Positions 3,835 to 22,593 of a stretch of DNA of 64,000 bases are shown one piece after another (position 1 is the stretch's first letter; each line of letters begins with the position of its first letter). The position numbers and the translations under genes are program-made. This DNA is from Rivularia sp. PCC 7116 (GTDB lineage Bacteria > Cyanobacteriota > Cyanobacteriia > Cyanobacteriales > Nostocaceae). Under the pieces are notes generated by a model. The model worked only from the letters and a program-made list of their open reading frames with translations. It was not told where the DNA came from and did not search any database. Location of the stretch: assembly GCF_000316665.1 (NCBI RefSeq), contig NC_019678.1, positions 6,448,001 to 6,512,000 of the forward strand, written 5' to 3'.

Positions 3835-5094
3835 ATGGCAGAGAATCAACAACCAGGAAAATATGATGCTGTCTTAGGAGGGAAAAATCCACCTCCAGTT
3901 GATAGTGCGGTATTGGGTGGAATTGAAGGAGTAAAGCGTAGATTATCGAATCCGGTAGTTGACGTAAAATTGGCAGCGCTTACCGATGCTCTTAACTATC
4001 AAGAAGCTGGTTTGGAGTTGGTGATTCAAGCTTTGCAAAATAAGCCAAAAATAATACAGCGTTATGCTTATAAGTTATTGCGACGAAGAAAAGAAACCCA
4101 GGTAAAACAAGCTTTAGAGCATTATCAGCCTTGGGATTTATTCGAGAGATTGCAGGGATATATTGGTTATAAAGGGGAGCACGCCGGAAGATTTGCGAAT
4201 CGTTTAAGTGTAGATTACAATCTGGAAGTTGGAATTGAAGACTCTACGAATACAGCTTATGCTTTACGATGGGATTGGGATGGCGATCGCCCTACCATAG
4301 CAGAACAAATTACAAGCATTTCCCAAGATTCCCAAGCCGGTAAATTAGAAGCTTTGATTATTGGCTTGTGGGCTGACGATACAGAAGTTGGTAGCGACGA
4401 AATTGTCAGTAGACTGGTTGATGCAAAAGATAAATTAACCAACTTAAAAGCCATCTTTATCGGTGATATTCACTACGAAGAAAGCGAAATATCGTGGATT
4501 GCACAAGGTGATATAAGTCCGATTTTAAGAGCATATCCTCAATTAGAAGTATTGCAAGTGCGCGGTGGAGACGGGTTACAATTTAATGCTCCGGTAAGAC
4601 ACAACAATCTACAAACGTTGATTGTAGAAACTGGGGGATTGAGTAGCGAAACAGTTGCTCAAATTTGTAACATGAATCTTCCAGCATTAGAGCATTTAGA
4701 ATTATGGCTTGGTAGCGATAGCTATGGTGGAGATTGTAGGATTGTAGACGTAAAACCGATTTTAGAAGACTTAATATTTGCCGATTTAAATTATTTAGGA
4801 TTGCGTAACAGTGAATTTGCAGATGATATTGCAGAAGCAGTAGTTAAATCTCCTTTAATTGAAACAATTAGCGTACTTGATTTATCGCTAGGAAATTTGA
4901 GCGATAAAGGTGCCGAATATTTGCTTAATTGTGCGGCGGTGAATGAGCTTGATATTCTTAATGTTTCCGAAGCTCGTTTATCAGATGAAATGGTTGGTAA
5001 ATTGTCCAAACTTGATTGTCGGTTGTTAGCAGAAAAACAGGATGCTGATTCTCATTATGATCATGAATATCGTTATTGTGCCGTGACTGAGTGA
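3835..5094 (+). CDS. STM4015-like leucine-rich-repeat protein with N-terminal VLGG module (copy 1)
   Basis: 419 residues. Residues 1-40 carry the double motif YDAVLGG...AVLGGIEGVKRR; residues about 41-105 are helical and HEAT-like (ALNYQEAGLELVIQAL). Residues about 120-400 match the pattern of the STM4015 family: short LRR-like strands such as LEVLQVRG, NNLQTLIVETGG, LEHLELWLG and LNYLGLRNS. No signal peptide or membrane segment, so it is probably cytoplasmic. Two paralogues (5244, 11110) and two WD40 proteins (16664, 18425) share its N-terminus. It heads a locus encoding STM4011-4014-like enzymes. By context it is a client or scaffold for them (inference). Biochemical function of the family is not known to me. 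Confidence 0.8.
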   Translation: MAENQQPGKYDAVLGGKNPPPVDSAVLGGIEGVKRRLSNPVVDVKLAALTDALNYQEAGLELVIQALQNKPKIIQRYAYKLLRRRKETQVKQALEHYQPWDLFERLQGYIGYKGEHAGRFANRLSVDYNLEVGIEDSTNTAYALRWDWDGDRPTIAEQITSISQDSQAGKLEALIIGLWADDTEVGSDEIVSRLVDAKDKLTNLKAIFIGDIHYEESEISWIAQGDISPILRAYPQLEVLQVRGGDGLQFNAPVRHNNLQTLIVETGGLSSETVAQICNMNLPALEHLELWLGSDSYGGDCRIVDVKPILEDLIFADLNYLGLRNSEFADDIAEAVVKSPLIETISVLDLSLGNLSDKGAEYLLNCAAVNELDILNVSEARLSDEMVGKLSKLDCRLLAEKQDADSHYDHEYRYCAVTE

Positions 5095-5109
5095 AAACCT
5101 CACCCCCAG

Positions 5110-5134
5110 CCCCTCTCCTTGTTAAGGAGAGGGG
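5110..5134 (+). terminator. strong hairpin after the first LRR gene
   Basis: Perfect stem CCCCTCTCCTT-GTT-AAGGAGAGGGG 16 bp after the stop at 5094. It is not followed by a T-run and belongs to a dispersed palindrome family seen also at 13416, 33728 and 57534 and inside genes, so a terminator role is plausible but not certain. Confidence 0.45.
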
Positions 5135-5243
5135 AGTACGGAAGAAGTTTTTAGGTATATAAAATCATCTATGATTCATCATTTTAAATTAATTATGAAT
5201 CTGAAGATAAAGTGTCAATTAAGAAATATCAATTAATAAAAAT

Positions 5244-6476
5244 ATGAATAGCAATCAAAATCAACCAAGAGAATTCGATGTTGTTTTAGGTGGAAACAAT
5301 GCACCTCCGGTAACTGGTGCTGTGTTGGGAGGAATTGAAGGTGTTAAGCGACGGTTGGAAAGTGAAATTGTAGATGTACGAATTAAAGCGCTTTCTGATG
5401 CTCTTAACTATCAAGAAGCTGGTTTAAATTTAGTTATTGAAGCTTTGGAAGATGATTCGTTACAGGTAAAAGGTTTTGCTTCGAGGTTGTTGAAGAAATT
5501 CGGAGGTGAAAAAGGTAAACAAGCGCTGTTGGAATTCGATCCTTATTTGTATTTTACGAAGTTGGAAGATTGGGAAGTTGAAGAGTTTGATTATGAAGTT
5601 GGGATTGTGAATCCAGAGGGTAAAGCTTATGTTGTGAATTTGGAGAAATTACGGCTTTTAGTACAAGATGATAGAGTCAATGAAGTTGAAGCTTTGATTT
5701 GTTATTTGCAAGACTATAATGTTTATTACGAAGTTAGCCAAGAATATGATGATTTAGCTGAGTTTTTTGATAATAATCGGAAAGAATTAGAAAATTTAAA
5801 AGCTTTATTTGTAGGTGATGCACAAATAGATACATTTAGAAAATCTTATCTCGGAATTGGTGATATAACTAATTTGTTATCAAGTTTTCCAAATTTAGAA
5901 GTTTTGCACCTTCGCGGTTGCTGTACTGATTTATGCAGCGGTATGTTAGGACATAATAATTTAAAAACGCTGGTTATTGAAACGAGAGATATTAGTGATA
6001 TGTCAATTCAGGTATTGTGCTCTCTGAATTTACCAGTTTTAGAATATTTTGAGTTATGGATAGGTAGAGATTTTGAAAATACTTGTGACAATGTTATCAA
6101 AAGTATTAAACCAATTCTTTTTGGCGAATCATTTCCGAAGTTAAGTTATTTAGGAATACGTAGCTGTGAATATGCTAATGCTGTTGCTGAAGCAATTATG
6201 GAATCTTCTTTTATGGCTGATTTTCCTATAATTGATAATCTTTTCGTGCTTGATTTAACGATGGGAAATTTGACAGATGAAGGTTTAGACAATTTGATTG
6301 GAGTTCCGGCTATTTCTAATTTACATACTCTTGATGTTTCTCATAATTGTGTAAGTGAAGAATTTCTCGAAGGAGTTGAGCATTTATTACTTCATTGTTG
6401 GATAATTTCAGATTTTCAAGAAGAAATAGCTGATAGAGGAGTAGGTGCATCCCGTTACTTTGCTTTACATGAGTAA
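5244..6476 (+). CDS. STM4015-like leucine-rich-repeat protein with N-terminal VLGG module (copy 2)
   Basis: 410 residues. The N-terminus has FDVVLGG...AVLGGIEGVKRRL and the helical DALNYQEAGLNLVIEAL segment, followed by LRR-like strands (LEVLHLRGC, NNLKTLVIETRD, LEYFELWIG, LSYLGIRS, LFVLDLTMG, LHTLDVSHN). Its stop at 6474-6476 overlaps a possible start of the following STM4014-like gene (ATGAGTAA at 6469-6476), so translational coupling is likely. It is more diverged and more AT-rich than copies 1 and 3. The function is inferred only from its place in the locus: a client or scaffold for the radical SAM and ATP-grasp-like enzymes. Confidence 0.8.
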   Translation: MNSNQNQPREFDVVLGGNNAPPVTGAVLGGIEGVKRRLESEIVDVRIKALSDALNYQEAGLNLVIEALEDDSLQVKGFASRLLKKFGGEKGKQALLEFDPYLYFTKLEDWEVEEFDYEVGIVNPEGKAYVVNLEKLRLLVQDDRVNEVEALICYLQDYNVYYEVSQEYDDLAEFFDNNRKELENLKALFVGDAQIDTFRKSYLGIGDITNLLSSFPNLEVLHLRGCCTDLCSGMLGHNNLKTLVIETRDISDMSIQVLCSLNLPVLEYFELWIGRDFENTCDNVIKSIKPILFGESFPKLSYLGIRSCEYANAVAEAIMESSFMADFPIIDNLFVLDLTMGNLTDEGLDNLIGVPAISNLHTLDVSHNCVSEEFLEGVEHLLLHCWIISDFQEEIADRGVGASRYFALHE

Positions 6477-6492
6477 TACCAAAAACAATAAA

Positions 6493-7746
6493 ATGAAAAA
6501 TCTTACAATCATAGCCAACCCGGAAAACCGTCGCGTCGGATTGCTCCAAGAAGCGATCGCCAATCTCAATCTACCACCCGCAACCGTTATCTCCTATGCA
6601 GATTTAATTACAGGAAAACAAAACCTCGAAGTCACACCCAATAACATCATCCGCTTTGATTCTCCGGAGAAGAATTTTGATGTTGATAAGGCAATTATTG
6701 CTGCGGGGGATTTGAGAGAGGGGGAAGAGGGGGGAGAAATTAATAATTATCAAAAAATTAGTTCTCAAGATGTTGAGAAGTTGGAGTTTGATAAGGGAAG
6801 AATTCTTTATCCGCGACAGTGGTATTTGGGTTGGCGAAATTTGTTACGACGGTGGGAGAAAAACCTCACCCCTAACCCTTCTCCTTGTTTAAAGAGAGGG
6901 GAGAAAAACCTCACCACTAAATCGTCTCCTTGTTTAAGTAGAGGGGAGAAAAACCTCACCCCCAGCCCCTCTCCTTGTTTAAGGAGAGGGGGATTGGAAG
7001 TTATGAATCATCCTGGGGATATTGCGGTGATGTTTGATAAACCAAGGTGTCACGAAAGATTTAGCAAAAATAACGTTCCGGTAGCGCGTTGTTTGGGGAA
7101 AATTCATAATTACGAACACTTACGCCAACAAATGCAATCTCAAGGTTTAGAACGGGTTTTCATTAAATTATCTCACGGTTCGAGTGCTTCTGGAGTGATT
7201 GCTTACCGCGCTAATTCCCGCTTTGAATCGGCTATCACCACGGTGGAAAGAGTACGAGAAGACGGGGAAACTTTACTTTATAATTCCCGCAGAATTCGTA
7301 ACTATACAAAACGCGAAGAAATCGCCGATATTATCAATATTTTAACTGCCGAAGGGGTAATTGTTGAGGAATGGCTACCGAAATCGCGGTTACAAGGATG
7401 CGGTTTTGATTTGCGAGTTGTGGTTATCGATGGTGAAGCACAACATACAGTTGTTCGTTTGGGAAAAAGTCCCATGACTAACTTACATTTGGGTAACGAA
7501 AGAGGAAATATAGATGAATTTTTAGACAAGGTTGGTGATGAGAATTGGCAGAAAATGAAACGTACTTGCGAACAAGCTGCTGCTTTATTTCCTAATAGTT
7601 TATATTGCGGAGTTGACTTGATGATTTTACCGGATTGGGAGCAACACGCTGTTTTAGAAATAAATGCTTTTGGGGATTTGTTGCCGGGGATTACTTATTG
7701 TGGTTTAGATACTTATGAAAGCGAATTGAAAGCGATTATTAAATGA
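6493..7746 (+). CDS. STM4014-like protein, ATP-grasp fold expected
   Basis: About 417 residues from the chosen ATG at 6493 (MKNLTIIANPENRR); an in-frame ATG at 6469 overlapping the previous stop is an alternative start, giving 425 residues. The C-terminal half has features of RimK-like ATP-grasp enzymes: VFIKLSHGSSASGVIAY (about 230), IVEEWLPK, FDLRVVVIDGE, and the metal-site-like VLEINAFGDLLP near the end. ATP-grasp enzymes join a carboxylate to an amine; the substrate here is unknown. Residues about 122-166 are three 15-residue repeats (EKNLTPNPSPCLKRG type) encoded by an intergenic repeat that invaded the gene in frame. It lies directly after an LRR gene. Family call by locus and sequence pattern. 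Confidence 0.75.
   Translation: MKNLTIIANPENRRVGLLQEAIANLNLPPATVISYADLITGKQNLEVTPNNIIRFDSPEKNFDVDKAIIAAGDLREGEEGGEINNYQKISSQDVEKLEFDKGRILYPRQWYLGWRNLLRRWEKNLTPNPSPCLKRGEKNLTTKSSPCLSRGEKNLTPSPSPCLRRGGLEVMNHPGDIAVMFDKPRCHERFSKNNVPVARCLGKIHNYEHLRQQMQSQGLERVFIKLSHGSSASGVIAYRANSRFESAITTVERVREDGETLLYNSRRIRNYTKREEIADIINILTAEGVIVEEWLPKSRLQGCGFDLRVVVIDGEAQHTVVRLGKSPMTNLHLGNERGNIDEFLDKVGDENWQKMKRTCEQAAALFPNSLYCGVDLMILPDWEQHAVLEINAFGDLLPGITYCGLDTYESELKAIIK
6856..6990 (+). repeat. three tandem 45-bp intergenic-type repeats inside the STM4014-like gene
   Basis: Units start at 6856, 6901 and 6946, each 45 bp (15 codons). Each unit is GAGAAAAACCTCACC plus CCTTCTCCTTG-type palindromic sequence, the same family as the hairpins at 5110, 13416 and 33728. 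Because the period is a multiple of three, the frame stays open. Confidence 0.85.
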
Positions 7747-7887: not shown

Positions 7888-8184
7888 TTAAACATTTGAA
7901 GTCAAAGAAATTTTAACTTGTTTATTCAAAGCAGAAGCAATTTTTTGCAACATAGAAAGCGAATGTCCTTCATAATCAGCATCTTCAAGTCGAGCAATCA
8001 CGGGTTGTTTTGTACCAACTAAATCAGCAAGTTGCTTTTGTGTTAATCCTGCTTGAGTTCTTGCTTCATATATAAGTTGTGCTACTTCCGCATTAATAGA
8101 AGCTGTAATCACCATTTCTTGAAGTTCGGGGTCATTACGGTGAATGTTTTCAAGTATTTTCAAAGCGTCGTCAGTTTTCTTCAT
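7888..8184 (-). CDS. XRE-family HTH antitoxin (HigA-like)
   Basis: 98 residues from ATG at 8184 (MKKTDDALKIL). Residues about 45-85 form a helix-turn-helix of the XRE/Cro type: RTQAGLTQKQLADLVGTKQ followed by PVIARLED. The chosen start overlaps the last 14 bp of the upstream toxin frame, the usual layout of a toxin-first HigBA operon; an upstream in-frame start at 8223 would add 13 residues and is less likely. As an antitoxin it would bind its toxin and repress its own promoter. The toxin gene is frameshifted, so this is probably an orphan antitoxin. Confidence 0.8.
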   Translation of the reverse strand: MKKTDDALKILENIHRNDPELQEMVITASINAEVAQLIYEARTQAGLTQKQLADLVGTKQPVIARLEDADYEGHSLSMLQKIASALNKQVKISLTSNV

Positions 8185-8564
8185 TTTCTTCTCTATAAGT
8201 ATGAATATCTGGATTTTCTTCAAACAAGGATTTTCTTGTTATTGCTCGTTCAATATCAATATCTGCTACTGTTGCTTGTTCTTTAACAATCGCATGAGCA
8301 AGAATCGCTATATTTTGACCGTGAAAAAAATAAAGAATACGATATTGAACATGAATATGTTTTGCTCTCAACTCATAGATATTATCCCTCAAATAATCCA
8401 CAGCAGGTCTACGCAATTCGTACCCGAATGATTCAAGTAAATTAATTTTACCAACACAATTAGCTAATCGCTTTCTTATTTTCTTTTGAAAGTCGCGTTA
8501 ACCATTCTAGAACGGGAACTTCACCATCCTCTTCTTTATAGAAAACAATACGAGTCTCAGGCAT
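8171..8564 (-). pseudogene. RelE/HigB-like toxin gene broken by a +1 frameshift
   Basis: From ATG at 8564 the frame encodes MPETRIVFYKEEDGEVPVLE and continues to ...KENKKAIS then a stop at 8460-8462. Shifting frame by one base there continues as NCVGKINLLESFGYELRRP and then DNIYELRAKHIHVQYRILYFF to the stop at 8171. The two halves together make a full-length RelE/ParE-fold toxin of about 130 residues. A single extra base near 8464-8467 explains the break. The C-terminal end overlaps the antitoxin start. The toxin is expected to be inactive unless frameshifting occurs. Confidence 0.8.
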
Positions 8565-8624: not shown

Positions 8625-9458
8625 ATGCAAAACATCAACCAAATCATCGGCACCCACGACATCGTATTTATCACCCTCGACACCCTCCGTTACGACATCG
8701 CAACCGAATTAATATCACAAAACCGCACCCCAAATTTAGCTAAAGTATTACCAAATGGTTGGGAAAAACGACATTCACCGGGAAACTTTACCTATGCATC
8801 CCATCAAGCATTTTTCGCGGGTTTTCTTCCTACTCCCGTCACTCCAGGAATTCACCCGAGATTGTTCGCTTTGAAATTCGCCGGAAGTACTACAACTACC
8901 GAAAAAACCTGTGTTTTAGAAGGTGAAAATATAGTCAAGGGATTAGCGCGAAAAGGTTATCATACCGTTTGTATTGGTGGTGTGGGATTTTTCAACAAAC
9001 AGAATCCCTTGAGTAACGTGATTCCTTCAATGTTCGCAGAAAGTTACTGGAATCGAGAATTAGGAGTTACCGATCCAAAATCAACCGAGAATCAAATCCT
9101 ATTAGCTGAGAAAATCCTTAATAAAACTCCTCAAAATCAACGTTTATTCTTATTTATTAATATTTCCGCGCTGCATCAACCCAATTTTTTTTACCTTGAA
9201 GGTGCTAAAACAGACACATTGGAAACTCACGCAGCCGCATTAGAATACATTGATCGCCAACTAGGAAAACTCTGGAATGCCTTACAAAAACGTGCTTCTA
9301 CCTTCTGCATACTCACCTCCGACCACGGAACAACATACGGTGAAGATGGTTACACCGGACATCGAATTAGTCATCCCGTCGTGTGGACTGTTCCTTATGG
9401 GGAATTTGTGTTGGAGACTCGCGAGACTTGTTCCCAGGTTACACCTGGGAATGCATAA
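8625..9458 (+). CDS. STM4013/SEN3800-like hydrolase (alkaline phosphatase/sulfatase superfamily)
   Basis: 277 residues. The N-terminus has FITLDTLRYDIA, whose Asp residues match the first metal site of alkaline-phosphatase-superfamily enzymes; near residue 233 LTSDHGTTYGEDGYTGHR supplies the second Asp-His pair and a later His. These are the hallmarks of two-metal phospho- or sulfo-hydrolases. The last ~15 residues (ETRETCSQVTPGNA) are encoded by an intergenic repeat that entered the 3' end, so the ancestral protein probably ended just after PYGEFVL. It lies 113 bp before the STM4012-like gene and is likely co-transcribed with it. The substrate is unknown; the name rests on locus context and the metal motifs. 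Confidence 0.8.
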   Translation: MQNINQIIGTHDIVFITLDTLRYDIATELISQNRTPNLAKVLPNGWEKRHSPGNFTYASHQAFFAGFLPTPVTPGIHPRLFALKFAGSTTTTEKTCVLEGENIVKGLARKGYHTVCIGGVGFFNKQNPLSNVIPSMFAESYWNRELGVTDPKSTENQILLAEKILNKTPQNQRLFLFINISALHQPNFFYLEGAKTDTLETHAAALEYIDRQLGKLWNALQKRASTFCILTSDHGTTYGEDGYTGHRISHPVVWTVPYGEFVLETRETCSQVTPGNA

Positions 9459-9571: not shown

Positions 9572-10936
9572 ATGATAACCAACAACCATCCGTTACCAAC
9601 CCATCCCTTATTAAAATCCAAAATCTTCCAATCCTACGTTTATTCCTACCCCCACAAAACCGCATATCGTCCGATTTCCCCCCAAAAACCCCTCACCGAC
9701 GTATGGAGTCAAGAAGACAAAAACGCTTTATTCCTCTACATTCACATTCCCTTTTGTGAAATGCGCTGCGGTTTCTGTAATTTATTCACCACAGTCACCC
9801 ACAATCAAGATTTTGTCACTCAATACGTCAATACCCTACAAAAACAAGCCAAACATGTCAAAGCAGCTTTAGGTAAAAGTTCATTTGCAAGATTAGCGAT
9901 TGGTGGAGGTACACCGACTCAGTTACCGATTCACCATTTAGAAGCCGTGTTGAATGTTGCTGAAGATACCATGAGCGTGGATTTACAACAGATTCCCATA
10001 TCCGTGGAAATGTCACCGGAAACCGCTACCAAAGATAAATTAGAATTGTTGCGATCGCGAGGTGTAACTCGTGCCAGTATCGGAGTCCAAAGCTTCTTTG
10101 AATCGGAGGTTGCAGCAGTTAACCGCCGTCAAACCACCGCCGAAGTAGAAGCCGCACTGACAAGAATGCGAGAAGCGGGTTTTCCCACAATCAACATTGA
10201 TTTAATATACGGATTACCCGGGCAAACAGTAGAAACCTGGTTGCAATCGATACGCGCTGCATTGCAGTTTGAACCAGAAGAAATATTTTTGTATCCCCTG
10301 TACGTGCGTCCCCTCACCGGATTGGGAACCTCAGAAAAAGAATGGGATGACATCCGCTTGAATTGTTACCGTCAAGGAAGGGATTTTCTTTTATCACAAG
10401 GATACACCCAAAAATCCATGCGAATGTTCCAAAAAAATTCTACCCCCTCTCCCCACTCTTCCCCCTCTCCCCACTCTTCCCCCTCCCCAATCTACTGCTG
10501 CCAACAAGACGGAATGGTAGGTTTAGGATGCGGCGCACGCTCGTATACCGATGATTTGCATTATTCCAACGAATACGCAGTAGGAGGAAAGGGAATCCGC
10601 GAGATTTTGCAAGGGTATATTAAAACACCGGAAGATTGCTTTGATTTTGTTAATTACGGTTTTCAGCTAGATGCAGAAGAGAAGGGTAGGAGATACATTT
10701 TATTATCTTTACTTTCTCATGAAGGATTGAATTTACATCAATATCAAACGCGATTTAATACAGAATTATTTAGTGATTTCCCGGAATTGTCGGAATTAAT
10801 TGATTTGAATTTAGTTGTTGATGAAAGCAGAATATTGCGATTAACTCAAACTGGTGTGGAATATTCCGATGCCATTGGGGAATGGTTGTTTTCTGCGAAG
10901 GTGCGGGAATTGATGCAGAGATATGAATTGAAATAG
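9572..10936 (+). CDS. STM4012-like radical SAM protein (HemN/HemW-like)
   Basis: 454 residues. The radical SAM [4Fe-4S] motif CxxxCxxC is Cys62, Cys66, Cys69 (FCEMRCGFCN), preceded by LYIHIPFC, as in HemN/HemW proteins. GGGTPTQLP (about 112) is the SAM-binding glycine motif and SIGVQSF (about 172) is also HemN-like. The C-terminal ~100 residues resemble the HemN C-terminal domain. Residues about 290-308 are a low-complexity STPSPHSSPSPHSSPSP insertion encoded by an intergenic pyrimidine repeat. It probably generates a 5'-deoxyadenosyl radical for modification of an unknown substrate; it is unlikely to be a haem enzyme in this setting. It lies between the STM4013-like and third LRR genes. Confidence 0.85.
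   Translation: MITNNHPLPTHPLLKSKIFQSYVYSYPHKTAYRPISPQKPLTDVWSQEDKNALFLYIHIPFCEMRCGFCNLFTTVTHNQDFVTQYVNTLQKQAKHVKAALGKSSFARLAIGGGTPTQLPIHHLEAVLNVAEDTMSVDLQQIPISVEMSPETATKDKLELLRSRGVTRASIGVQSFFESEVAAVNRRQTTAEVEAALTRMREAGFPTINIDLIYGLPGQTVETWLQSIRAALQFEPEEIFLYPLYVRPLTGLGTSEKEWDDIRLNCYRQGRDFLLSQGYTQKSMRMFQKNSTPSPHSSPSPHSSPSPIYCCQQDGMVGLGCGARSYTDDLHYSNEYAVGGKGIREILQGYIKTPEDCFDFVNYGFQLDAEEKGRRYILLSLLSHEGLNLHQYQTRFNTELFSDFPELSELIDLNLVVDESRILRLTQTGVEYSDAIGEWLFSAKVRELMQRYELK
10439..10492 (+). repeat. in-frame CCCCACTCTTCCCCCTCT repeats within the STM4012-like gene
   Basis: Three near-identical 18-bp units of CTCTTCCCCCTCTCCCCA-type sequence. The same sequence is seen in intergenic DNA at about 57503-57530. 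The unit length is a multiple of three and keeps the frame. Confidence 0.75.
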
Positions 10937-13613: not shown

Positions 13614-13832
13614 ATGGCTGAGTATAGAAGAGTAGAATATCGCATTGGGAAAGACGGTAAAATCACTGAAACAGTCATCGGCGCTTCCGGTGCTGGCTGT
13701 ACCGAAACCACTTCCGGAATAGAAGACGCTTTAGGTAAAGTTGAATCTCAAGAATTGCTCCCCGAATATTACGAAGGGGAAGAAAACATTACTTCAACGG
13801 AAAATCAATCTTTGAAAAATAAAAACGGATAA
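13614..13832 (+). CDS. DUF2997 family small protein
   Basis: 72 residues from ATG at 13614, chosen because a GAGGA ribosome site lies 7-11 bp upstream and because family members begin MAEYRRVEYRIGKDGKITET. The frame opens further upstream (13557), but that part is repeat-derived. Highly charged, with conserved GASGAGCTETTSGIE and LPEYYEGEEN segments. DUF2997 proteins in cyanobacteria are often found with DUF1257 (Ycf35) and a Ycf46-type AAA+ ATPase; here those genes lie 6-7 kb downstream on the other strand. Molecular function is unknown. Confidence 0.85.
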   Translation: MAEYRRVEYRIGKDGKITETVIGASGAGCTETTSGIEDALGKVESQELLPEYYEGEENITSTENQSLKNKNG

Positions 13833-14850: not shown

Positions 14851-16410
14851 ATGATTGTCATCGATTTCGGAACCAGCAATACCATTGTTTGTACCACCGA
14901 CACTATTACTCAACAACCGCGTACACTAAAATTCGACTTTCTTTCACGTCGCTTTAACGAGGTAAGCGTGATTCCTTCGCAAGTATTCGTCAAATCGCCA
15001 AATAATTTGATTTTTGGCGAACCTGTACGCTCTCAAAGATTGAGTTTTAGTCAACCACAGCGGTATTTTCAAGCATTTAAACGGGATTTAGCGGCGGATT
15101 TTGTTCCCCCTCCCCGCGTTTTGGATGATGTTAATTACAGTGCTGAAGCGATATCGGAACTGTTTTTAAAAGAAATTTGGAGTCACGTAAAACAACAATT
15201 GGAACCCAGTCGAGTTATTTTTACCGTTCCCGTGGGTGCTTTTGAACGATATTTGCATTGGTTTAACGGTTTGGGTGAAAAGCTGGATATTCCCCAATTG
15301 CAAATCGTTGATGAATCCACAGCAGCAGCTTTGGGTTATGCTGTCAAACGCCCCGGCAGCTTGGTTTTGGTGGTGGATTTCGGTGGTGGAACTTTGGATT
15401 TAAGTTTAGTTCGTACCGTCAAAAGTAATTCTCAATCTTCATCTGTACGTGCGGAAGTAATTGCGAAATCTGATGCTTTTGTCGGTGGAATTGATATTGA
15501 TAATTGGATTGTAGAAGATTATCTGAGAAAAACAAATTCGAGTCGGGAAGAAGTGGGGGAAGTTGGCTATCAGAATTTGTTGGAAATTGCCGAAAGATTG
15601 AAAATGAAGCTTTCCACGGATAATGAAGCGAAGGAATCCTGGTTTGACGATGAGAATTTTATGTCTCACGAATTGCAGTTAAACTCGGATGAATTAGCGG
15701 ATATTTTAGAAAATCGTCAGTTATTAGAGCAACTGCGACAGACATTAGATGAAGTGTTGGCGATCGCCTTGAGTAAAGGAATCGGCAAAGCGGATATAGA
15801 AAAGGTTTTATTAGTGGGAGGTAGCTGTCAAATTCAAGCAGTACAGCAATTGATTATTTCTTATTTTGGCAGACAGAAAGTTAAATTAGACAAACCGTTT
15901 GAAGCAGTAGCTCACGGTGGTTTGGCTTTAAACGAAATGGTAGAAATCGACGATTATTTGCGTCATAGCTATGCAATTCGGTTGTGGGAACCCCATAGTA
16001 AAAAATATTCCTACATGACATTGATTGAAAAGGGAACGAATTATTTAGGGGATAACGATAAAAAAGCCAGAATTGACGAACCATTGATATTACAAGCAGC
16101 CATAGAAGGACAAAAAGAGATTCGTTTGGATATTGGTGAAATTGCGGAAATGTCCCAAGCTGAAGTTACTTATGATGCCCAAGGAAGAATGACAAGCAGT
16201 CATTTAGTGAAACAGGAAACCTATCGTTCTTTAGATACTCAACATCAACAAGTTTGTATCGCCCATTTAGAGCCACCCGGAGAATTGGGAATCGATAGAG
16301 TTTCCGTAAAATTTGGCGTTAACGAGCAGAGGATGTTGGTTGCTACCGTGAAGGATTTATTGACAGGGAAAGCGTTGGTAGTGAGAGAGGCGATCGCTAA
16401 ATTGAAATGA
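14851..16410 (+). CDS. Hsp70 family protein
   Basis: 519 residues. The actin-like ATPase signatures are visible: phosphate-1 IDFGTSNTIVCT (4-15), VDESTAAALGYA (about 157-168), phosphate-2 VVDFGGGTLDLSLV (about 175-188), and adenosine motif VLLVGGSCQIQAV (about 325). After residue ~370 there is only a shortened C-terminal part that differs from the standard DnaK substrate-binding domain and lid, so it is a divergent Hsp70 and not the housekeeping DnaK. ATP-dependent folding or remodelling of neighbours such as the LRR/WD40 proteins is an inference. Located directly after the HTH/coiled-coil gene. Confidence 0.85.
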   Translation: MIVIDFGTSNTIVCTTDTITQQPRTLKFDFLSRRFNEVSVIPSQVFVKSPNNLIFGEPVRSQRLSFSQPQRYFQAFKRDLAADFVPPPRVLDDVNYSAEAISELFLKEIWSHVKQQLEPSRVIFTVPVGAFERYLHWFNGLGEKLDIPQLQIVDESTAAALGYAVKRPGSLVLVVDFGGGTLDLSLVRTVKSNSQSSSVRAEVIAKSDAFVGGIDIDNWIVEDYLRKTNSSREEVGEVGYQNLLEIAERLKMKLSTDNEAKESWFDDENFMSHELQLNSDELADILENRQLLEQLRQTLDEVLAIALSKGIGKADIEKVLLVGGSCQIQAVQQLIISYFGRQKVKLDKPFEAVAHGGLALNEMVEIDDYLRHSYAIRLWEPHSKKYSYMTLIEKGTNYLGDNDKKARIDEPLILQAAIEGQKEIRLDIGEIAEMSQAEVTYDAQGRMTSSHLVKQETYRSLDTQHQQVCIAHLEPPGELGIDRVSVKFGVNEQRMLVATVKDLLTGKALVVREAIAKLK

Positions 16411-16663: not shown

Positions 16664-17854
16664 ATGTCGGAGAATCAACCTAGACAATATGATGCAGTGC
16701 TTGGTGGTGGGAGTCAAGCGCCGGTTGATGGTGTGGTTTTGGGTGGGATTGAAGGTGTTAAAAGACGTTGGGAAACAGCGAATATTCAACAGAAGATTGT
16801 TGCACTTTCAGAAGCATTGAAATATGGGGATGCTGGTTTAGATTTTGTGATTCAAATTTGGCAAAATGAATTAGGACAAATTAGTTATGTTGCTTATTCA
16901 TTATTACGTCAGAAAGAAGAAGCAAAAGTTAAACAAGTTTTGCAAGAATATAATCCTTGGTTAAAGATAGGATGTGTTCATACTTTGCAAGATATTAACA
17001 CTAGATGTATCGCTATTCATTCAAATGGAAAAGTATTTTTTGATGGCTCAAACTCGATAAATACTTTTGATTTACATACAGGGGAAGTTGAAGCAACTTC
17101 TATGAGTTATGTAAGCTTCGGAAATATTTTGATAAGCCCAATTAAAAAAAATATTATTACTAGGGGTGGTACATCTTGCTTCGATAGTGGAATCAAAATA
17201 TGGGATTCGCAAACTAACGAGCGTCTATTATTTTTAGATGAAAATTCAGAAAATGTCTTTTCCTTAGCAATAAGTCCAGATGAAAGTAAACTTTTTTGTG
17301 GTGTTAATTATCCAGGTACTGGAATTAGTGTCTGGAATCTAGAAACAGCTAAATATATTAAAACACTTCCCGGACATTCTAATCATGCAGTTCAAGCATT
17401 AGCAATTACTCCAGATGGAGAAACTATTATTAGTGGTGCGAATGACGGCAATGTTAAGGCTTTGAATGTAGAAACGGGTAAATTAATATTTTCATTAAAA
17501 AAACAAAGACATTCTAAAGGTGTTGAGTCAGTAGCTATTAGCCCAGATGGAAGAACAATAGTTAGCGGTAGTAAAGACAAAACAATCAAAGTTTGTAATT
17601 TAGAAAATAAAAAAATTATAAATACATTAGAAGGGCATAAAGGTTGGGTTTACTGTGTTGCTATCAGCCCTGACGGAAGCACTATTGTTAGTTGTAGCAG
17701 AGACAAAACAATTAGAATATGGGATTTGTATACAGGAGAATGTATACGTATTCTTGAAGGACATACAGATTGGGTTTATTGTATAGCAATTAGTCCCGAT
17801 GGTAAAACTCTCGTTAGCTGTAGTAGAGATAAAACAGTTAAAATCTGGGGTTAA
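16664..17854 (+). CDS. WD40-repeat protein with N-terminal VLGG module (copy 1)
   Basis: 396 residues. Residues 1-100 are the same module as the three LRR proteins: YDAVLGG...GVVLGGIEGVKRRW, then ALKYGDAGLDFVIQIW. From about residue 105 onward there are WD40 blades; the last three are textbook copies (VAISPDGRTIVSGSKDKTIK, LEGHKGWVYCVAISPDG, CSRDKTIRIWD). The start has a GAGG ribosome site about 10 bp upstream. It is probably cytoplasmic. Replacement of the LRR body by a propeller while the N-terminus is kept suggests the N-terminal module is the element recognised by a shared partner (inference). Confidence 0.85.
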   Translation: MSENQPRQYDAVLGGGSQAPVDGVVLGGIEGVKRRWETANIQQKIVALSEALKYGDAGLDFVIQIWQNELGQISYVAYSLLRQKEEAKVKQVLQEYNPWLKIGCVHTLQDINTRCIAIHSNGKVFFDGSNSINTFDLHTGEVEATSMSYVSFGNILISPIKKNIITRGGTSCFDSGIKIWDSQTNERLLFLDENSENVFSLAISPDESKLFCGVNYPGTGISVWNLETAKYIKTLPGHSNHAVQALAITPDGETIISGANDGNVKALNVETGKLIFSLKKQRHSKGVESVAISPDGRTIVSGSKDKTIKVCNLENKKIINTLEGHKGWVYCVAISPDGSTIVSCSRDKTIRIWDLYTGECIRILEGHTDWVYCIAISPDGKTLVSCSRDKTVKIWG

Positions 17855-18424: not shown

Positions 18425-19624
18425 ATGTCAGACAATCAACCTAGAGAATACGATGCGGTGCTTGGTGGTGATAGTCAAGCTCCCGTTGATGGTGTGGTTT
18501 TGGGAGGGATTGAAGGTGTTAAACGAAGGTTAAAGAATCCTGATGTTAAAGCAAGAATTGCAGGATTATATCAAGCGTTAAATTATGGTGATGCTGGATT
18601 AGATTTAGTAATTAAAGCTTTGCGAAATGAAAAAAATCTAATTAGAGCAACAGCTTATATAATACTGAAACAAAGAAAAGAAGAAATTGCAATCAAAACG
18701 TTACAAGGATGTAGTGATTATCATTTTTTTTATTGTATTTCAACTCTTGAAGAGCATGAATCTAGAGTTCATTCAGTTTGCATAACTCCTGATGGACAAA
18801 CTCTTATTAGCGGTAATCCACACAGGATTATCAGTTGGGAATGGAAAACGAATAAATCTGTGAAGACTATAGTAACTAAGAAAGATATCGCCTTTTATGA
18901 AAATGATTTCATCAGATTTATATGTATTAATCCTGCCAGAAAAACTCTTTTTATACGTAGTATATTTGGTATCATTAAAGAATTAAACTGGCAAAACCCA
19001 AATTATGACAATATTTCAAATATTAAAAATATGACGCGATATCATGCTCTAATTTTTGATGAAACTGGTAATATTGCATTTATTAATATAAAGAGTAGCA
19101 TTCAAGTATGGGATTGCTTTAATCAGAAATGTCAAGGTGAGTTAAGAGCAAATTTACAGCCTATTTTTTCTCTAGCTATGAATGGAAAAACTTTATTTGG
19201 CGGTAGCGGAGATAATACGATAAAAATCTGGAATTGGCAAAAAGAACAACTAATTAGTACTTTAGAAGGACATTCATATTGGGTTACATCTTTATGCATC
19301 TCCCCAGATGGAAAAACATTATTCAGCGGTAGCGGAGATAATACAATTAAAATCTGGAATTGGCAGAAAGCAGAACTAATACGAACTTTAGAAGGACATT
19401 CTTTAGGAGTTAACTCCCTTGCAATTAGCCCAGATGGAAAAACTTTAATCAGCGCTAGTAACGACACAACAATCAAAGTTTGGAATTGGAGAACTGGAAA
19501 ACTTCAAACTACATTAACAGGACATTCAGCAGAAGTAAATTCAATCGTCTTAAGTCCAGATGGTAAATATTTGTTCAGCGGAAGTAGTGATAAAACCGTC
19601 AAAGTTTGGGGATTAAAAGAGTAA
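18425..19624 (+). CDS. WD40-repeat protein with N-terminal VLGG module (copy 2)
   Basis: 399 residues. The N-terminus YDAVLGG...GVVLGGIEGVKRRL is nearly identical to the WD40 copy at 16664, followed by ALNYGDAGLDLVIKAL. The propeller starts near residue 110; the last four blades are regular (SGSGDNTIKIWNWQK, LEGHSYWVTSLCISPDGKTL, SASNDTTIKVWNWRTG, SGSSDKTVKVWG) while the middle part is degenerate. Two adjacent blades are near-identical at DNA level (19198-19248 and 19324-19374), a recent internal duplication. Function is inferred as a client or scaffold of the locus. Confidence 0.85.
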   Translation: MSDNQPREYDAVLGGDSQAPVDGVVLGGIEGVKRRLKNPDVKARIAGLYQALNYGDAGLDLVIKALRNEKNLIRATAYIILKQRKEEIAIKTLQGCSDYHFFYCISTLEEHESRVHSVCITPDGQTLISGNPHRIISWEWKTNKSVKTIVTKKDIAFYENDFIRFICINPARKTLFIRSIFGIIKELNWQNPNYDNISNIKNMTRYHALIFDETGNIAFINIKSSIQVWDCFNQKCQGELRANLQPIFSLAMNGKTLFGGSGDNTIKIWNWQKEQLISTLEGHSYWVTSLCISPDGKTLFSGSGDNTIKIWNWQKAELIRTLEGHSLGVNSLAISPDGKTLISASNDTTIKVWNWRTGKLQTTLTGHSAEVNSIVLSPDGKYLFSGSSDKTVKVWGLKE

Positions 19625-19626: not shown

Positions 19627-19770
19627 AAATCCATCCGTTATCCAAAACCAACACATTCGTTATTCACCAAAAATCCATCCGTTGCCAAAATCCATCCGTT
19701 ACCAAAATCCATCCGTTACCAAAATCCATCCGTTATCCAAAACCAACCCATTCGTTACTCACCGAAAAAG
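19627..19770. repeat. tandem array of a CATCCGTTACC-type unit
   Basis: At least seven imperfect units of about 17 bp (CAAAATCCATCCGTTACC) plus longer variants with CCCATTCGTTACTCACC. It fills the gap between convergent genes. Similar words occur at about 9583-9605. Confidence 0.8.
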
Positions 19771-19780
19771 CATCCGTTGC

Positions 19781-20188
19781 CTAACTCCACCTAGCCACAA
19801 CAACCCTAACCGTACCATCTTCCATAACCTCATCTTCCTCCACCGTAAACCCCTGCTCCTGTGCCGAAGCCATCAAACTATAATAACCGTAACGCTGCAT
19901 CACTTTACCCAACCATTGTTGATTGTATCTACCGCGATCAAATTCAGATATAATCGCTTGATATTGTCCATCTTCCTGTAATTTAAAACCAATATCATTA
20001 CTATAAGAGCCAACATATTTACGTCGAATAATCACCTCAGCAGTTTCCGCTCGCACATCACCTTGATAACCATATAAACTTTCTGCCGTTTCGTGAACTT
20101 CAATATTTTTAAACCCCACATCAGCCAAAGCTTTAACTAATGCATCTCTATCTTTTATTTGAGTTTTTATAGCTGTGAAATGTGACAT
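19781..20188 (-). CDS. DUF1257 (Ycf35) family protein, copy 1
   Basis: 135 residues, starting MSHFTAIKTQIKDRDALVKAL, the characteristic Ycf35/DUF1257 opening. Conserved parts include EVHETAESLYGYQGD, AEVIIRRKYV, DIGFKL and the C-terminal VEEDEVMEDGTVRVVVARW. Soluble, without catalytic motifs. Ycf35 is conserved in cyanobacteria and plastids of red algae; its role is unknown to me. It is followed on the same strand upstream by a paralogue (20436-20837) and a Ycf46-type ATPase (20968-22593), so the three genes probably form one unit transcribed leftward. Confidence 0.9.
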   Translation of the reverse strand: MSHFTAIKTQIKDRDALVKALADVGFKNIEVHETAESLYGYQGDVRAETAEVIIRRKYVGSYSNDIGFKLQEDGQYQAIISEFDRGRYNQQWLGKVMQRYGYYSLMASAQEQGFTVEEDEVMEDGTVRVVVARWS

Positions 20189-20414: not shown

Positions 20415-20435
20415 AAAGCGCAACTACGAACGAAC

Positions 20436-20837
20436 TTAAACCCAACTCCCTACAACAACCCTCACGGTACCATCTGACAAAACTTCCTCTTCCTCTACAT
20501 TAAAACCCTGCTCCGCAACAGTAGCCATCAGAGTTTTATGAGCATACTTTTGAGTAATTGAATTCACAAATTGCTTTTGATTAATCTTCGCACCCCAAAA
20601 GTCAGCTACGATTTCATAATTTTCACCTTGACGACGAAAACCCAAATCGTAACCATTATTTTGCCGAATTACATATTCAGCTTGAGTGCGATTAGCGGAG
20701 CTAAACGCCTTCGGCGTAACGCCATGATATCCTCGCACCTGAGTATTGCATTCAACTTGATAGCCTAACTCCTGCAATACCTGATGTAAAATTTCACCGT
20801 GCTTAATTTGAACCTTGATACTTGTAAAGTGAGACAT
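20436..20837 (-). CDS. DUF1257 (Ycf35) family protein, copy 2, with a repeat-encoded insertion
   Basis: 133 residues from ATG at 20837 (MSHFTSIKVQIKHGEIL). An upstream in-frame start at 20873 would add repeat-derived residues (MPNAQLPITKLI) and is rejected. It aligns with copy 1 along its length, ending VEEEEVLSDGTVRVVVGSW. Residues about 45-56 (GVTPKAFSSANR) have no counterpart in copy 1 and are encoded by a GCGTTACGCCGAAGGCGTT-like palindrome common in cyanobacterial intergenic DNA. It lies 130 bp downstream of the Ycf46-like ATPase and is probably co-transcribed with it. Function unknown. Confidence 0.9.
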   Translation of the reverse strand: MSHFTSIKVQIKHGEILHQVLQELGYQVECNTQVRGYHGVTPKAFSSANRTQAEYVIRQNNGYDLGFRRQGENYEIVADFWGAKINQKQFVNSITQKYAHKTLMATVAEQGFNVEEEEVLSDGTVRVVVGSWV

Positions 20838-20967
20838 GATTAATTTGGTAATTGGTAATTGGGCATTGGGCATGGGGCATTGGAAATAGATATTCCTAAC
20901 TCCTAACTCCTAACTTTTTCTCCCCCCTCTACCCCCTCTACCCCTTCTCCCCCCTCCCTTGTTAATC

Positions 20968-22593
20968 TCAATCGACTTCCAAAGGAGAAATCCCTCCGGA
21001 GCTATACTGTTTCAATTCTTCTACTAACTGCACATCATTTGATGCACTCCTCGCTCCTGCTTGAGCAGCCCATTGTTTTAATGCATCAATTTGCTCTTTT
21101 GCAATAGAAGCCAAAGGTACGGTAACTTCTATAGCTCTAAGAATATCTTCTGTAATAAAGTCCCGGCGATGTCCGTTAAGTTTACTAGAAAATGCATTGT
21201 GCATTGCTTCAATTATTACTTGTTCTATCTCCGCACCACTAAAATTTTCTGTTCTACTTGCTAATAAAGTTAAATCAAAATCTCGCACTCGGTTGGGACG
21301 TAATTTCTGAATATGAACTTTTAAAATGTCTTGTCTTTCGGCTTCGGTGGGTAAATTCAAGAAGAATATTTCGTCAAATCTTCCTTTCCTTAACAATTCT
21401 GCTGGCAATATTTGCACGTTATTCGCGGTTGCAACAATAAATACTGGACTAGTTTTCTCCTGCATCCAAGTTATCAAGCTACCAAATACCCGTCGCGATG
21501 TACCGGAATCTCCATCAACACCGCTACTAATATTTCCGAATGCTTTATCTATCTCATCCATCCATAAGACGCATGGTGCCATTGCTTCGGTAAGCTGAAT
21601 CATTTGACGCACCCGGCTTTCACTTTCCCCGACAATTCCGCCAAATAAACGCCCGGTATCGAGTCTTAATAACGGTAATCGCCATTCGTGAGCAATGGTT
21701 TTTGCACTCAAAGATTTACCAGTACCTTGAATTCCTACAAGTAATGCTCCTTTAGGATTGGGAATTCCATACCGTCTCGCTTCTTCGGTGAAAGCATCTT
21801 GACGCAACTGCACCCATTGTTTAAGTTGATCTAATCCTCCCACTCTTTTCAAAGATTCGGAAGGTGTGAAAAATTCTAAGATTCCGGTTTGGCGAATAGT
21901 TTGTTTTTTCTCTGCTAAAACACCACTAATATCAGATTCATTAACCTGCTGTTTTGCTGCCAAAGCTTTCGCCAAAACTCGCTGAATCCGGCTCCGACTC
22001 AATCCTTGACAGGCTTTTACTAATTGCTCTCGCGCCAAACCTGCTAATTTCAGCTTTTCGGGTACCACCAACTGCTCGACTAAATAATTAATTTGCTCTA
22101 CATCGGGTAAAGGAAAATCAACAACCGTAACTTCCTCTTTTAATTCTTCAGGTATTTCTAAAGTATGGCTGGTAAGAATAATCGACTTGCGACTGCGCTT
22201 CAATTCTCTGGCTAAATTTCGCAACTCCCGCACAATCGGCGCACTTTTTTCCGTAGTCAGATTTTTCATATAGGGGTGCAAATCCCGCAACACGAATATT
22301 ATCGATTTTTGGGTGTCGGTTTTACCAATGCGAGCCAGCGCTGGCATCACAGAGCCTTTATCCGCACCGTTATCGCTCCAACCCCGCACGACATCCCAAT
22401 ACAATACCTGACGCGCTGGTTGCGACAGCGCAGCAACCTTAAATAAAACCTCTTCTAAAGGCTCTTCTTCCACGGCAACCATATATAGTAGAGGATACCG
22501 CGCTCGAATCATCAAATCTATTTGCTCGACAAGCTCAAAGTTAGGAATTTCCTTACTTTCTGCTGATTGTTTTTCAGGAAAATTAGTCATCAC
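20968..22593 (-). CDS. ycf46: Ycf46-type AAA+ ATPase
   Basis: 541 residues. The N-terminal ~240 residues are the Ycf46-specific domain (YPLLYMVAVEEEPLEEVL, a degenerate P-loop-like region). The AAA+ module has Walker A GIQGTGKS (287-294), Walker B LWMDEID (343-349), sensor-1 VATANN and second-region LRKGRFDEIFFLNLPT. It is homologous to plastid-encoded Ycf46, soluble, and is expected to remodel protein partners using ATP. It lies at the head of a leftward unit with two Ycf35 proteins; the recurrent Ycf46/Ycf35/DUF2997 neighbourhood suggests one complex (inference). Alternative start at 22590 (second Met). Confidence 0.9.
   Translation of the reverse strand: MMTNFPEKQSAESKEIPNFELVEQIDLMIRARYPLLYMVAVEEEPLEEVLFKVAALSQPARQVLYWDVVRGWSDNGADKGSVMPALARIGKTDTQKSIIFVLRDLHPYMKNLTTEKSAPIVRELRNLARELKRSRKSIILTSHTLEIPEELKEEVTVVDFPLPDVEQINYLVEQLVVPEKLKLAGLAREQLVKACQGLSRSRIQRVLAKALAAKQQVNESDISGVLAEKKQTIRQTGILEFFTPSESLKRVGGLDQLKQWVQLRQDAFTEEARRYGIPNPKGALLVGIQGTGKSLSAKTIAHEWRLPLLRLDTGRLFGGIVGESESRVRQMIQLTEAMAPCVLWMDEIDKAFGNISSGVDGDSGTSRRVFGSLITWMQEKTSPVFIVATANNVQILPAELLRKGRFDEIFFLNLPTEAERQDILKVHIQKLRPNRVRDFDLTLLASRTENFSGAEIEQVIIEAMHNAFSSKLNGHRRDFITEDILRAIEVTVPLASIAKEQIDALKQWAAQAGARSASNDVQLVEELKQYSSGGISPLEVD

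What the first reader, a model, noticed from the sequence alone, without database searches (positions are those of the whole stretch)
3835..22593. Expanded STM4011-4015 type locus combined with Hsp70, DUF2997, Ycf35 and Ycf46
Seen: two radical SAM enzymes, an ATP-grasp-like protein, an alkaline-phosphatase-superfamily hydrolase and three LRR proteins interleaved with two WD40 proteins, an Hsp70 with an HTH/coiled-coil partner, DUF2997, two DUF1257 and a Ycf46 ATPase. Known: the STM4011-4015 families co-occur in bacteria but their chemistry is not known to me. Inference: a radical-chemistry plus ligase system modifies or matures a set of scaffold proteins, with chaperone and AAA+ helpers. This is the best candidate in the window for an undescribed system.
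Basis: partly seen in the sequence, partly recalled or inferred. Interest (0 to 1): 0.85.

Follow-up and report, generated by a model that had tools for sequence, protein, structure and literature searches.

The report
LRR proteins joined to chaperone module
In this cyanobacterium a widespread but unexplained set of enzymes, which probably decorates the tail of a leucine-rich-repeat protein, has been merged with a cyanobacterial Hsp70-type chaperone module through a shared plug-like domain found on many swappable proteins.

Summary
The locus holds a complete STM4011-4015 cassette (three LRR proteins) beside DUF2997, a GrpE-like protein (the 'HTH/coiled-coil partner'), an Hsp70, two WD40 proteins, two DUF1257/Ycf35 and Ycf46. 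Two features were missed. (1) The three LRR and two WD40 proteins share a ~100-residue N-terminal domain (YDAVLGG...VLGGIEGVKRRL plus HEAT-like helices). It occurs exactly five times in this genome, all here. In other cyanobacteria it is fused to WD40, FGE, GUN4, pentapeptide and other modules and recurs beside the same five chaperone/Ycf families, mostly without STM4011. (2) STM4015 proteins of several phyla end in R[YF]xxxxE-COOH (at least one such copy in 67 of 70 loci); tagged proteins without an STM4015 domain do not (0 of 83). Best reading: two separable systems. STM4011/4012/4014/4013 mature the C-terminal tail of STM4015. The tag docks assorted sensors on an Hsp70-GrpE-Ycf46 module, and cyanobacterial STM4015 acquired the tag, probably more than once. 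Anatomy and co-occurrence are shown; chemistry and docking are inferred. The WD40 proteins are probably not substrates of the radical enzymes.

The parts
3835..5094 (+). LRR1: N-terminal tag domain + STM4015 LRR domain + tail RYCAVTE
   Evidence: NF038076 297 bits (cut-off 275); homologous to PDB 2ra8, E 5.9e-37
5244..6476 (+). LRR2: tag + STM4015-like LRR + tail RYFALHE
   Evidence: (159 bits, below cut-off)
6493..7746 (+). STM4014 family RimK-like ATP-grasp protein (likely start ATG 6493, my choice); carries a 45-nt x3 in-frame repeat at 6854-6991
7888..8564 (-). HigBA-type toxin-antitoxin pair between STM4014 and STM4013; toxin frame interrupted; not part of the system
   Evidence: (antitoxin HTH_3, toxin Gp49); the N-terminal toxin piece was recognised by eye
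8625..9458 (+). STM4013/SEN3800 family alkaline-phosphatase-superfamily hydrolase
9572..10936 (+). STM4012 family HemN-like radical SAM protein
11110..12369 (+). LRR3: tag + STM4015-like LRR + tail RYCTVGE
   Evidence: (217 bits, below cut-off)
12553..13431 (+). STM4011 family radical SAM protein with five conserved C-terminal cysteines (SPASM-like)
13614..13832 (+). DUF2997 protein (likely start ATG 13614, my choice)
13933..14733 (+). GrpE-like protein with hydrophobic N-terminal stretch, HTH insert and coiled coil (module GrpE)
14851..16410 (+). Hsp70: ATPase domain plus apparent beta substrate-binding part; appears to end before a helical lid (read by eye)
16664..17854 (+). WD1: tag + WD40 repeats, no tail
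18425..19624 (+). WD2: tag + WD40 repeats, no tail
19781..20188 (-). DUF1257/Ycf35 a
20436..20837 (-). DUF1257/Ycf35 b (likely start ATG 20837, my choice)
20968..22593 (-). Ycf46 AAA+ ATPase; two close paralogues (53% and 44% identity) elsewhere in this genome

Best explanation
Two separable systems are joined here. (A) Maturation cassette: STM4015 is a carrier protein whose LRR body presents an acidic linker and a C-terminal heptapeptide, R[YF]xxxxE, ending in a free glutamate. STM4011 (SPASM-like radical SAM) and STM4012 (HemN-like radical SAM) act on this tail; STM4014 (RimK-like ATP-grasp) joins something to the terminal glutamate; STM4013 removes or transfers a phosphate-type group in the pathway. 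(B) Chaperone/sensor module of cyanobacteria: an Hsp70 that seems to lack the helical lid, a membrane-anchored GrpE-like exchange factor, DUF2997, Ycf35 and the AAA+ Ycf46 form a machine. Many different sensor proteins dock on it through one shared N-terminal tag domain, much as J-proteins share a J domain. In the window the matured LRR carriers also bear the tag, so the modified tail is put under control of, or delivered to, the chaperone module. Shown: gene content, the tag, the tail, co-occurrence and co-localisation. Inferred: tail modification, docking, membrane anchoring, order of steps, and the biological role (probably sensing or conflict signalling).
For: Tail: 45 of 48 non-cyanobacterial and 58 of 69 cyanobacterial STM4015 ORFs (E<1e-10) end R[YF]xxxxE; in the 48 the last seven positions carry 2.85-4.18 bits against 0.78-2.79 at the 38 positions before. 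At least one such ORF in 25 of 25 and 42 of 45 loci with an STM4015; 1 of 3,844 other six-frame ORFs of 100 aa or more has the pattern; 0 of 83 tagged ORFs without an STM4015 match. STM4015 and STM4011 (over cut-off) occur in the same 5 of 386 cyanobacterial genomes. STM4011 keeps CX3CX2C and C206, C224, C248, C253, C255 in at least 95% of 65 rows; STM4014 keeps E390 and N392 (numbering) in at least 95% of 68 rows and matches RimK over the Pfam cut-off. Tag: exactly five hits in the own genome, all here. In loci around tag genes the widely recurrent families are Ycf35 (19 of 32 genomes), Ycf46 17, Hsp70 16, GrpE-like 15, DUF2997 15; the next has 5. Tag and module GrpE coincide in 24 genomes of 386, 2.7 expected. 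Among 26 STM401x-bearing cyanobacteria, genomes with a tagged locus have the module GrpE in 18 of 21, those without in 0 of 5. The LRR label on the tag tree needs at least 5 gains or losses on starred branches.
Against: No biochemistry exists. The tail could be a docking motif rather than a substrate. Three tagged genomes (L166, L168, L172) lack the module GrpE, and 8 of 32 tag genomes in the phylum sample lack it while 9 of 33 with it lack the tag. Tag-tree resolution is weak (110 columns, 34 open inner branches, bootstrap not settled). 29 of 32 tag genomes have no STM4011 over cut-off, so neither system needs the other. The window's GrpE-like protein is below the GrpE cut-off and the PDB match of its family is weak (E 0.031). 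No fold or complex could be predicted. 11 of 69 cyanobacterial STM4015 ORFs lack the exact tail.
Confidence: 0.5

Rival explanations
1. The STM4015 tail is not modified. It is a C-terminal docking peptide, in the manner of the EEVD tail of eukaryotic Hsp70 (recalled), that holds the enzymes or a receptor, and the radical chemistry acts on something else such as a small molecule.
For: A short, exactly terminal, strictly conserved motif after an acidic linker also fits a docking peptide. STM4013 has weak matches to small-molecule phosphoesterases and sulfatases.
Against: STM4015 accompanies two radical enzymes and a RimK-like ligase, and a RimK-like enzyme beside a protein that ends in glutamate (107 of 117 ORFs) fits a modification better; this is inference.
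Confidence: 0.3
2. The two gene sets share an island of repeat-protein genes by chance or hitch-hiking; the tag spread by duplication and recombination without function for STM4015.
For: Both sets occur apart in many genomes. Some tag loci hold short or broken copies (L077, L079, L163). Repeats and a toxin-antitoxin pair show an unstable region.
Against: A tag at the STM401x locus tracks presence of the module GrpE (18 of 21 against 0 of 5). Repeated re-pairing is implied by the tag tree, and the tag is kept in sequence across 126 rows (invariant residues).
Confidence: 0.15
3. The tag is a homotypic assembly domain, like the effector-associated domains of bacterial conflict systems, and Hsp70/Ycf46 only control its multimerisation.
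For: Several different tagged proteins stand side by side in one locus (G125: 9 tag matches, 8 of them within about 16 kb). Swappable modules, some apparently DGR-diversified, resemble conflict systems (papers, passages only).
Against: No recognised effector family recurs among neighbours or tagged proteins; single members of 44 match OTU-like protease (3.4e-9) and Peptidase_S49 (2.8e-7), whose place was not examined.
Confidence: 0.3

Closest known systems
STM4011-STM4015 cassette (NCBIfam NF038073, NF006067, NF038075, NF038074, NF038076)
   Same: All five families present in one cluster
   Different: STM4015 is triplicated and N-terminally fused to a cyanobacterial domain; a chaperone/Ycf module adjoins. 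No paper on the cassette's function was found (listings only)
HSP70/GrpE-bearing GTPase-centred conflict systems (Kaur et al. 2020, PMC7159879, passages seen)
   Same: Dedicated Hsp70 plus GrpE next to multidomain proteins
   Different: Here an AAA+ Ycf46 with Ycf35 and DUF2997; a term search of the paper found no Ycf46, DUF1257 or STM4015. A GTPase was not looked for here
DGR-diversified C-type-lectin sensors of multicellular bacteria (PMC10907252, PMC7517822, passages seen)
   Same: 5 of 11 tagged FGE-type genes of relatives compared have 3' ends that differ from a template repeat mainly at adenines
   Different: Their carrier is the tag, with Hsp70/Ycf46 genes nearby in some, rather than MoxR-vWA; a term search found no Hsp70 in either paper
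DUF2997-Ycf35-ferredoxin and Ycf46-Ycf35 gene pairs of cyanobacteria (PMC4284462, one passage, for the first)
   Same: Same protein families; both pairs also occur elsewhere in this genome (the ferredoxin was recognised by eye)
   Different: The window set is a further set joined to Hsp70 and GrpE-like genes
RimK/MptN/CofF glutamate ligases and SPASM radical SAM peptide maturases
   Same: Enzyme types nearest to STM4014 and STM4011 after their own families
   Different: Putative substrate is the C-terminus of a large LRR protein, not a short precursor peptide

Membership tests
STM4011-4015 cassette | All five NCBIfam families over cut-off, adjacent | tested here: met
   LRR2 and LRR3 themselves are below the STM4015 cut-off
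SPASM radical SAM peptide maturase (STM4011) | CX3CX2C plus C-terminal cysteine cluster; Pfam SPASM over cut-off | tested here: inconclusive
   Cysteines conserved, but PF13186 15.2 bits against cut-off 21.5 and Radical_SAM 22.7 against 29.5
RimK-like ATP-grasp (STM4014) | PF08443 over gathering score | tested here: met
   25.1 against 21; not over the RimK subfamily cut-off TIGR00768, 27.1 against 143.4
Sulfatase (STM4013) | C/S-x-P-x-R active-site motif (recalled) | tested here: not met
   PF00884 is over cut-off, but the positions conserved in 81 rows include PGNFTYA and no such motif was seen
GrpE | PF01025 over gathering score | tested here: not met
   Window protein 13.1 against 25.8 bits; yet 16 of 17 family members match at E<=1, best 4.6e-9, and the best PDB profile match is GrpE 1dkg_A at E 0.031: may work like GrpE, membership not proven
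DnaK | NCBIfam DnaK equivalog cut-off | tested here: not met
   88.8 against 648; general PF00012 met
J-domain co-chaperones | DnaJ domain in the tagged proteins | tested here: not met
   No DnaJ among matches of the three LRR proteins, among the best 25 of 53 and of 51 shown for the WD40 pair, or among families at E<=1e-5 in 44 other tagged proteins
DGR variable proteins | 3' variable repeat differing from a template repeat at adenines | tested here: inconclusive
   5 of 11 tagged genes of relatives show it clearly against the G048 template, 6 do not; the template lies in another genome than the clear cases; the window proteins have no FGE domain
RiPP | Leader-directed modification and release of a core peptide | not testable with these tools
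   Only tail conservation is at hand
GTPase-centred HSP70/GrpE conflict system | GAP1-N2 type GTPase beside Hsp70/GrpE | not tested
   No GTPase profile was run; beyond the five module families and the tagged proteins no family recurs in more than 5 of 32 genomes

The most novel reading that the evidence does not exclude
A J-domain-free Hsp70 receptor system: a membrane-anchored Hsp70-GrpE-Ycf46 machine with plug-in sensors that share one docking domain. Some sensors are diversified by DGRs, and others (STM4015) are armed by a radical SAM/ATP-grasp modification of a C-terminal heptapeptide, which would be a new class of protein maturation found from actinobacteria to cyanobacteria.
Probability: 0.3. 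Interest if true: 0.93.

Novelty: new variant of a known kind. Interest (0 to 1): 0.8.

Why it matters
STM4011-4015 is found in actinobacteria, proteobacteria, planctomycetes, chloroflexi and cyanobacteria, and the searches found no known substrate. A near-universal, exactly terminal heptapeptide on STM4015 makes the substrate question directly testable by mass spectrometry. The shared docking domain would turn Ycf35, Ycf46 and DUF2997 (families that I recall as widespread in cyanobacteria and, for Ycf35 and Ycf46, in algal plastids, without a settled role) into parts of a chaperone/sensor module whose partners can be tested.

Tried and rejected
Rejected: (i) One single modification system acting on LRR and WD40 proteins alike: tagged ORFs without an STM4015 match lack the tail (0 of 83, fragments included), and 29 of 32 tag genomes of the phylum sample have no STM4011 over cut-off. 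(ii) The tag as a leader for the radical enzymes: none of the 54 loci outside oxygenic cyanobacteria has it, no tag was found in the 50 of those 54 genomes given to (a call without a positive control of its own), and it is common where STM4011 is missing. (iii) STM4013 as a sulfatase. (iv) A phage or plasmid origin of the tag: no phage match; 6 plasmid records, all of cyanobacteria. (v) A known defence system: only partial PADLOC matches, such as IetA to the AAA protein, pVip to STM4011, two PDC models and a HEAT-ARM model to WD1; WD2, LRR2 and LRR3 were not scanned.

PDB sequence search found nothing for Ycf35 at E<=1, or for STM4014 and STM4011 at E<=0.01. No template repeat was found for the G103 variable genes in the G103 stretches looked at. 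Rfam gave nothing over gathering scores. Paper searches for the cassette, for Ycf35/Ycf46/DUF2997 and for the tag were seen as listings and gave no function.

Choices that affect counts: of 41 genomes with a tag match I kept 32, dropping nine whose match was weak or missed the N-terminal motif (G078, G167, G008, G111, G123, G157, G213, G255, G262). The module-GrpE set (33 of the 130 matching genomes) uses a cut of about 140 bits chosen by eye; the lowest kept scores 145 and the next below 138. The phylum searches scored only the first 12, 6, 7 and 6 candidates per genome, so absences and copy numbers there are lower bounds. The neighbourhood clustering used 40 loci from 32 genomes (30 of the other 31 tag genomes, plus G024 and G042; G199 was not fetched), one to three loci per genome, several at contig ends. 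The tool kept 80 of 99 STM4013 relatives. L157 of that set is the same contig as L096 (G024). Of 45 tagged proteins of other kinds, 44 were scanned in Pfam (one partial ORF left out).
Full report
OBSERVATION. The window is part of an 8.73-Mb genome, a cyanobacterium to judge by its relatives. The cassette order is LRR1, LRR2, STM4014, (toxin-antitoxin pair), STM4013, STM4012, LRR3, STM4011. Then follow DUF2997, a GrpE-like protein, Hsp70, two WD40 proteins, and on the other strand two Ycf35 and Ycf46.

THE SHARED N-TERMINAL DOMAIN. The three LRR and two WD40 proteins align over their first ~100 residues at 50-58% identity to LRR1, with the motif YDAVLGG...PP...AVLGGIEGVKRRL followed by HEAT-like helices. 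In this part no NCBIfam match was listed for the three LRR proteins (the WD40 pair was not scanned there), and Pfam gave only a HEAT_2 match below cut-off in LRR3 and none among the matches shown for the WD40 pair (capped lists). Relatives give HEAT_2 matches just below cut-off, and one of 44 matches the GUN4_N repeat domain at 4.6e-7 (place not examined). The own genome holds exactly five copies, all in this locus, with all 41 candidates scored. Of 386 cyanobacterial genomes, 41 have a match and 32 a convincing one (dropped rows are listed in Tried and rejected). No match was found in phage records, and 6 plasmid records matched, all cyanobacterial. None was found in 50 other genomes that carry STM4013 relatives (50 of 54 given, without a positive control). 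I call this domain the tag.

WHAT THE TAG IS FUSED TO. In 40 fetched loci from 32 genomes and the 80 loci, tagged ORFs carry STM4015-type LRRs (53), WD40 (28) and other parts (45 of at least 150 aa). Of the 45, 44 were scanned in Pfam at E<=1e-5: FGE/SUMF1 16, pentapeptide 6, LRV 5, GUN4 4, PspA 1, SUKH 1; the rest fall outside these families. On a tree of 126 tags the partner labels are clustered but need 16 changes in all; the LRR label alone needs at least 5 gains or losses on starred branches, so the tag has changed partners repeatedly (only 110 columns, 34 open inner branches, bootstrap not settled).

WHAT THE TAG LIES NEXT TO. Clustering all kept ORFs of the 40 loci gives, besides the tagged proteins themselves, five widely recurrent families: Ycf35 in 19 of 32 genomes, Ycf46 17, Hsp70 16, GrpE-like 15, DUF2997 15; the next family reaches 5. 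In whole genomes, the tag (32) and the module GrpE (33) coincide in 24 of 386, 2.7 expected; by genus 14 are shared, of 17 and 18 genera among 142. The p-values (3.6e-24, 2.4e-13) ignore shared ancestry. Eight tag genomes lack the module GrpE; in three of them (G072, G284, G305) core or tag genes near the tag are short or broken. Nine genomes have the module GrpE without a tag.

NATURE OF THE MODULE. By eye, nearly every row has a hydrophobic N-terminal stretch (no membrane predictor was run). HTH_26 is matched in 4 of 17. The window protein alone is below the GrpE cut-off. The Hsp70 is 41-74% identical to 13 relatives; after the ATPase domain it keeps a stretch that looks like the beta substrate-binding part and ends where the helical lid would begin (my reading of the alignment). 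This genome also has DUF2997-Ycf35-ferredoxin and Ycf46-Ycf35 pairs elsewhere and a further Ycf46, so the window set is an additional, specialised copy.

THE STM4011-4015 CASSETTE ELSEWHERE. A named-genome scan with STM4013 gave 80 loci of 99 relatives: 26 from oxygenic cyanobacteria and 54 others (actinobacteria, planctomycetes, chloroflexi, proteobacteria, myxobacteria, KSB3, a bacteroidete, one Obscuribacterales). All five families were seen in 18 of 26 and 41 of 54 (contig ends cut some, and several Chloroflexi-type loci show STM4013 alone). A tag on an STM4015 protein: 21 of 26 against 0 of 54; at least two module genes in the stretch: 12 of 26 against 0 of 54. In the whole genomes of those 26, the module GrpE (E of 1e-60 or better) is present in 18 of the 21 with a tagged locus and 0 of the 5 without (Fisher p 0.0009, ignoring ancestry). 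One of the five, L162, shows no STM4015 in its stretch, so there 'untagged' means no tag seen. The three exceptions are L166, L168 and L172; L166 and L172 still have Hsp70 and Ycf35 nearby. In the phylum sample 36 of 386 genomes match the STM4011 model but only 5 are over its cut-off, and the same 5 have STM4015. In three of these (window, G125, G340) the merged locus is present; in G024 and G042 STM4015 is untagged, and only the common GrpE paralogue is seen.

THE C-TERMINAL TAIL. STM4015 proteins of several phyla end in an acidic linker and R[YF]xxxxE at the exact C-terminus: window RYCAVTE, RYFALHE, RYCTVGE; in actinobacteria commonly RFVAVGE. Counts over 117 ORFs at E<1e-10: 45 of 48 outside oxygenic cyanobacteria and 58 of 69 within; ending in Glu 47 of 48 and 60 of 69; in the 48, information 2.85-4.18 bits at the last seven positions against 0.78-2.79 in the 38 before (taxa are related, so this overstates independence). 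At least one such ORF per locus: 25 of 25 and 42 of 45; two of the three misses differ from the pattern by one residue, the third ORF is short and at a contig end; background 1 of 3,844. Tagged ORFs without an STM4015 match: 0 of 83. The solved Bacteroides protein 2ra8 aligns up to residue 354 of its 362-residue chain, to a stretch ...YSYPMITE that resembles the tail without its Arg. Of the 11 cyanobacterial misses several are fragments and several extra paralogues, judged by eye.

ENZYMES. STM4011: CX3CX2C and five C-terminal cysteines conserved in at least 95% of 65 rows. STM4012: HemN-like, with CX3CX2C kept in at least 95% of 72 rows. STM4014: after its own family the best NCBIfam matches are glutamate ligases of the MptN, RimK and CofF type, all far below their cut-offs, and RimK and YheCD are over the Pfam cut-off. 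STM4013: Pfam places it in the alkaline phosphatase superfamily; Asp12, Asp19, Thr56, Asp233, His234 and His246 are among the positions kept in at least 95% of 81 rows, and no sulfatase motif was seen. A RimK-like ligase beside a protein that nearly always ends in Glu is, with E. coli RimK acting on the C-terminus of ribosomal protein S6 (recalled), the main reason to propose action at the terminal glutamate.

HYPERVARIABLE RELATIVES. In some relatives tagged FGE proteins look like DGR variable proteins. A DGR with a reverse transcriptase (Pfam RVT_1), a small accessory-type ORF and an adenine-rich template (both recognised by eye) lies in G048. Against this template, tagged genes of G022 differ at 19 of 34 adenines and 4 of 94 other bases, G153 18/34 and 7/94, G103 17/32 and 9/93, G231 22/34 and 8/91, G074 (second) 14/30 and 7/92. 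Six others do not show it clearly: G074 first 12/34 and 21/94, G074 third 19/32 and 32/78, G155 20/33 and 24/90, G048's own 20/31 and 22/75, G099 23/31 and 29/87, G368 22/31 and 19/77. The template is from a different genome than the clear cases, so this is suggestive only. It points to ligand-binding sensors.

LITERATURE. A search of the held library for the five STM names found two papers (listing only, each with one occurrence of one name); other searches gave nothing on function. Ycf35/Ycf46/DUF2997 searches were seen as listings, except one passage on DUF2997-Ycf35-fed7 in PMC4284462. The conflict-system and DGR papers were seen as passages.

VERDICT. A real, recurrent merger of two systems. 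The gene content, tag, tail and co-occurrence are shown here; tail maturation, docking and biological role are inferred.

Noticed in passing
window 7888-8564 (-): HigBA-type toxin-antitoxin pair between STM4014 and STM4013; the toxin frame is interrupted by a stop.
   Followed up: partly
window 6854-6991: Three 45-nt direct repeats lie in frame inside STM4014, adding about 40 residues that the four aligned relatives lack; related copies stand between genes.
   Followed up: partly
window 10956-11103 and 12404-12551: Two 148-nt copies, 91% identical, upstream of LRR3 and of STM4011; no Rfam match over gathering score.
   Followed up: partly
window 19626-19789: Repeats of about 17 nt (AAAATCCATCCGTTACC) just after the WD2 gene.
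   Followed up: no
window 943-2910 (-): Subtilase-family (S8) peptidase followed by a small ORF with a lipoprotein-like start (by eye).
   Followed up: no
L258 (G048) 3321-10200: Diversity-generating retroelement with two FGE-type target genes, one in a large protein after an ATPase gene that looks MoxR-like (by eye; FGE of the large one and RT by Pfam).
   Followed up: partly
L173 13902-19252 and L174 14204-17803: Runs of six and four tagged genes whose C-terminal parts I could not identify.
   Followed up: no
L083 9452-10567, L085 10052-11200: Tagged pentapeptide-repeat proteins directly after Ycf35, with a widely spaced double VLGG motif, in genomes of about 3 Mb.
   Followed up: no
window 55656-56464: Tandem array of a 264-nt unit, 3.1 copies.
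   Followed up: no
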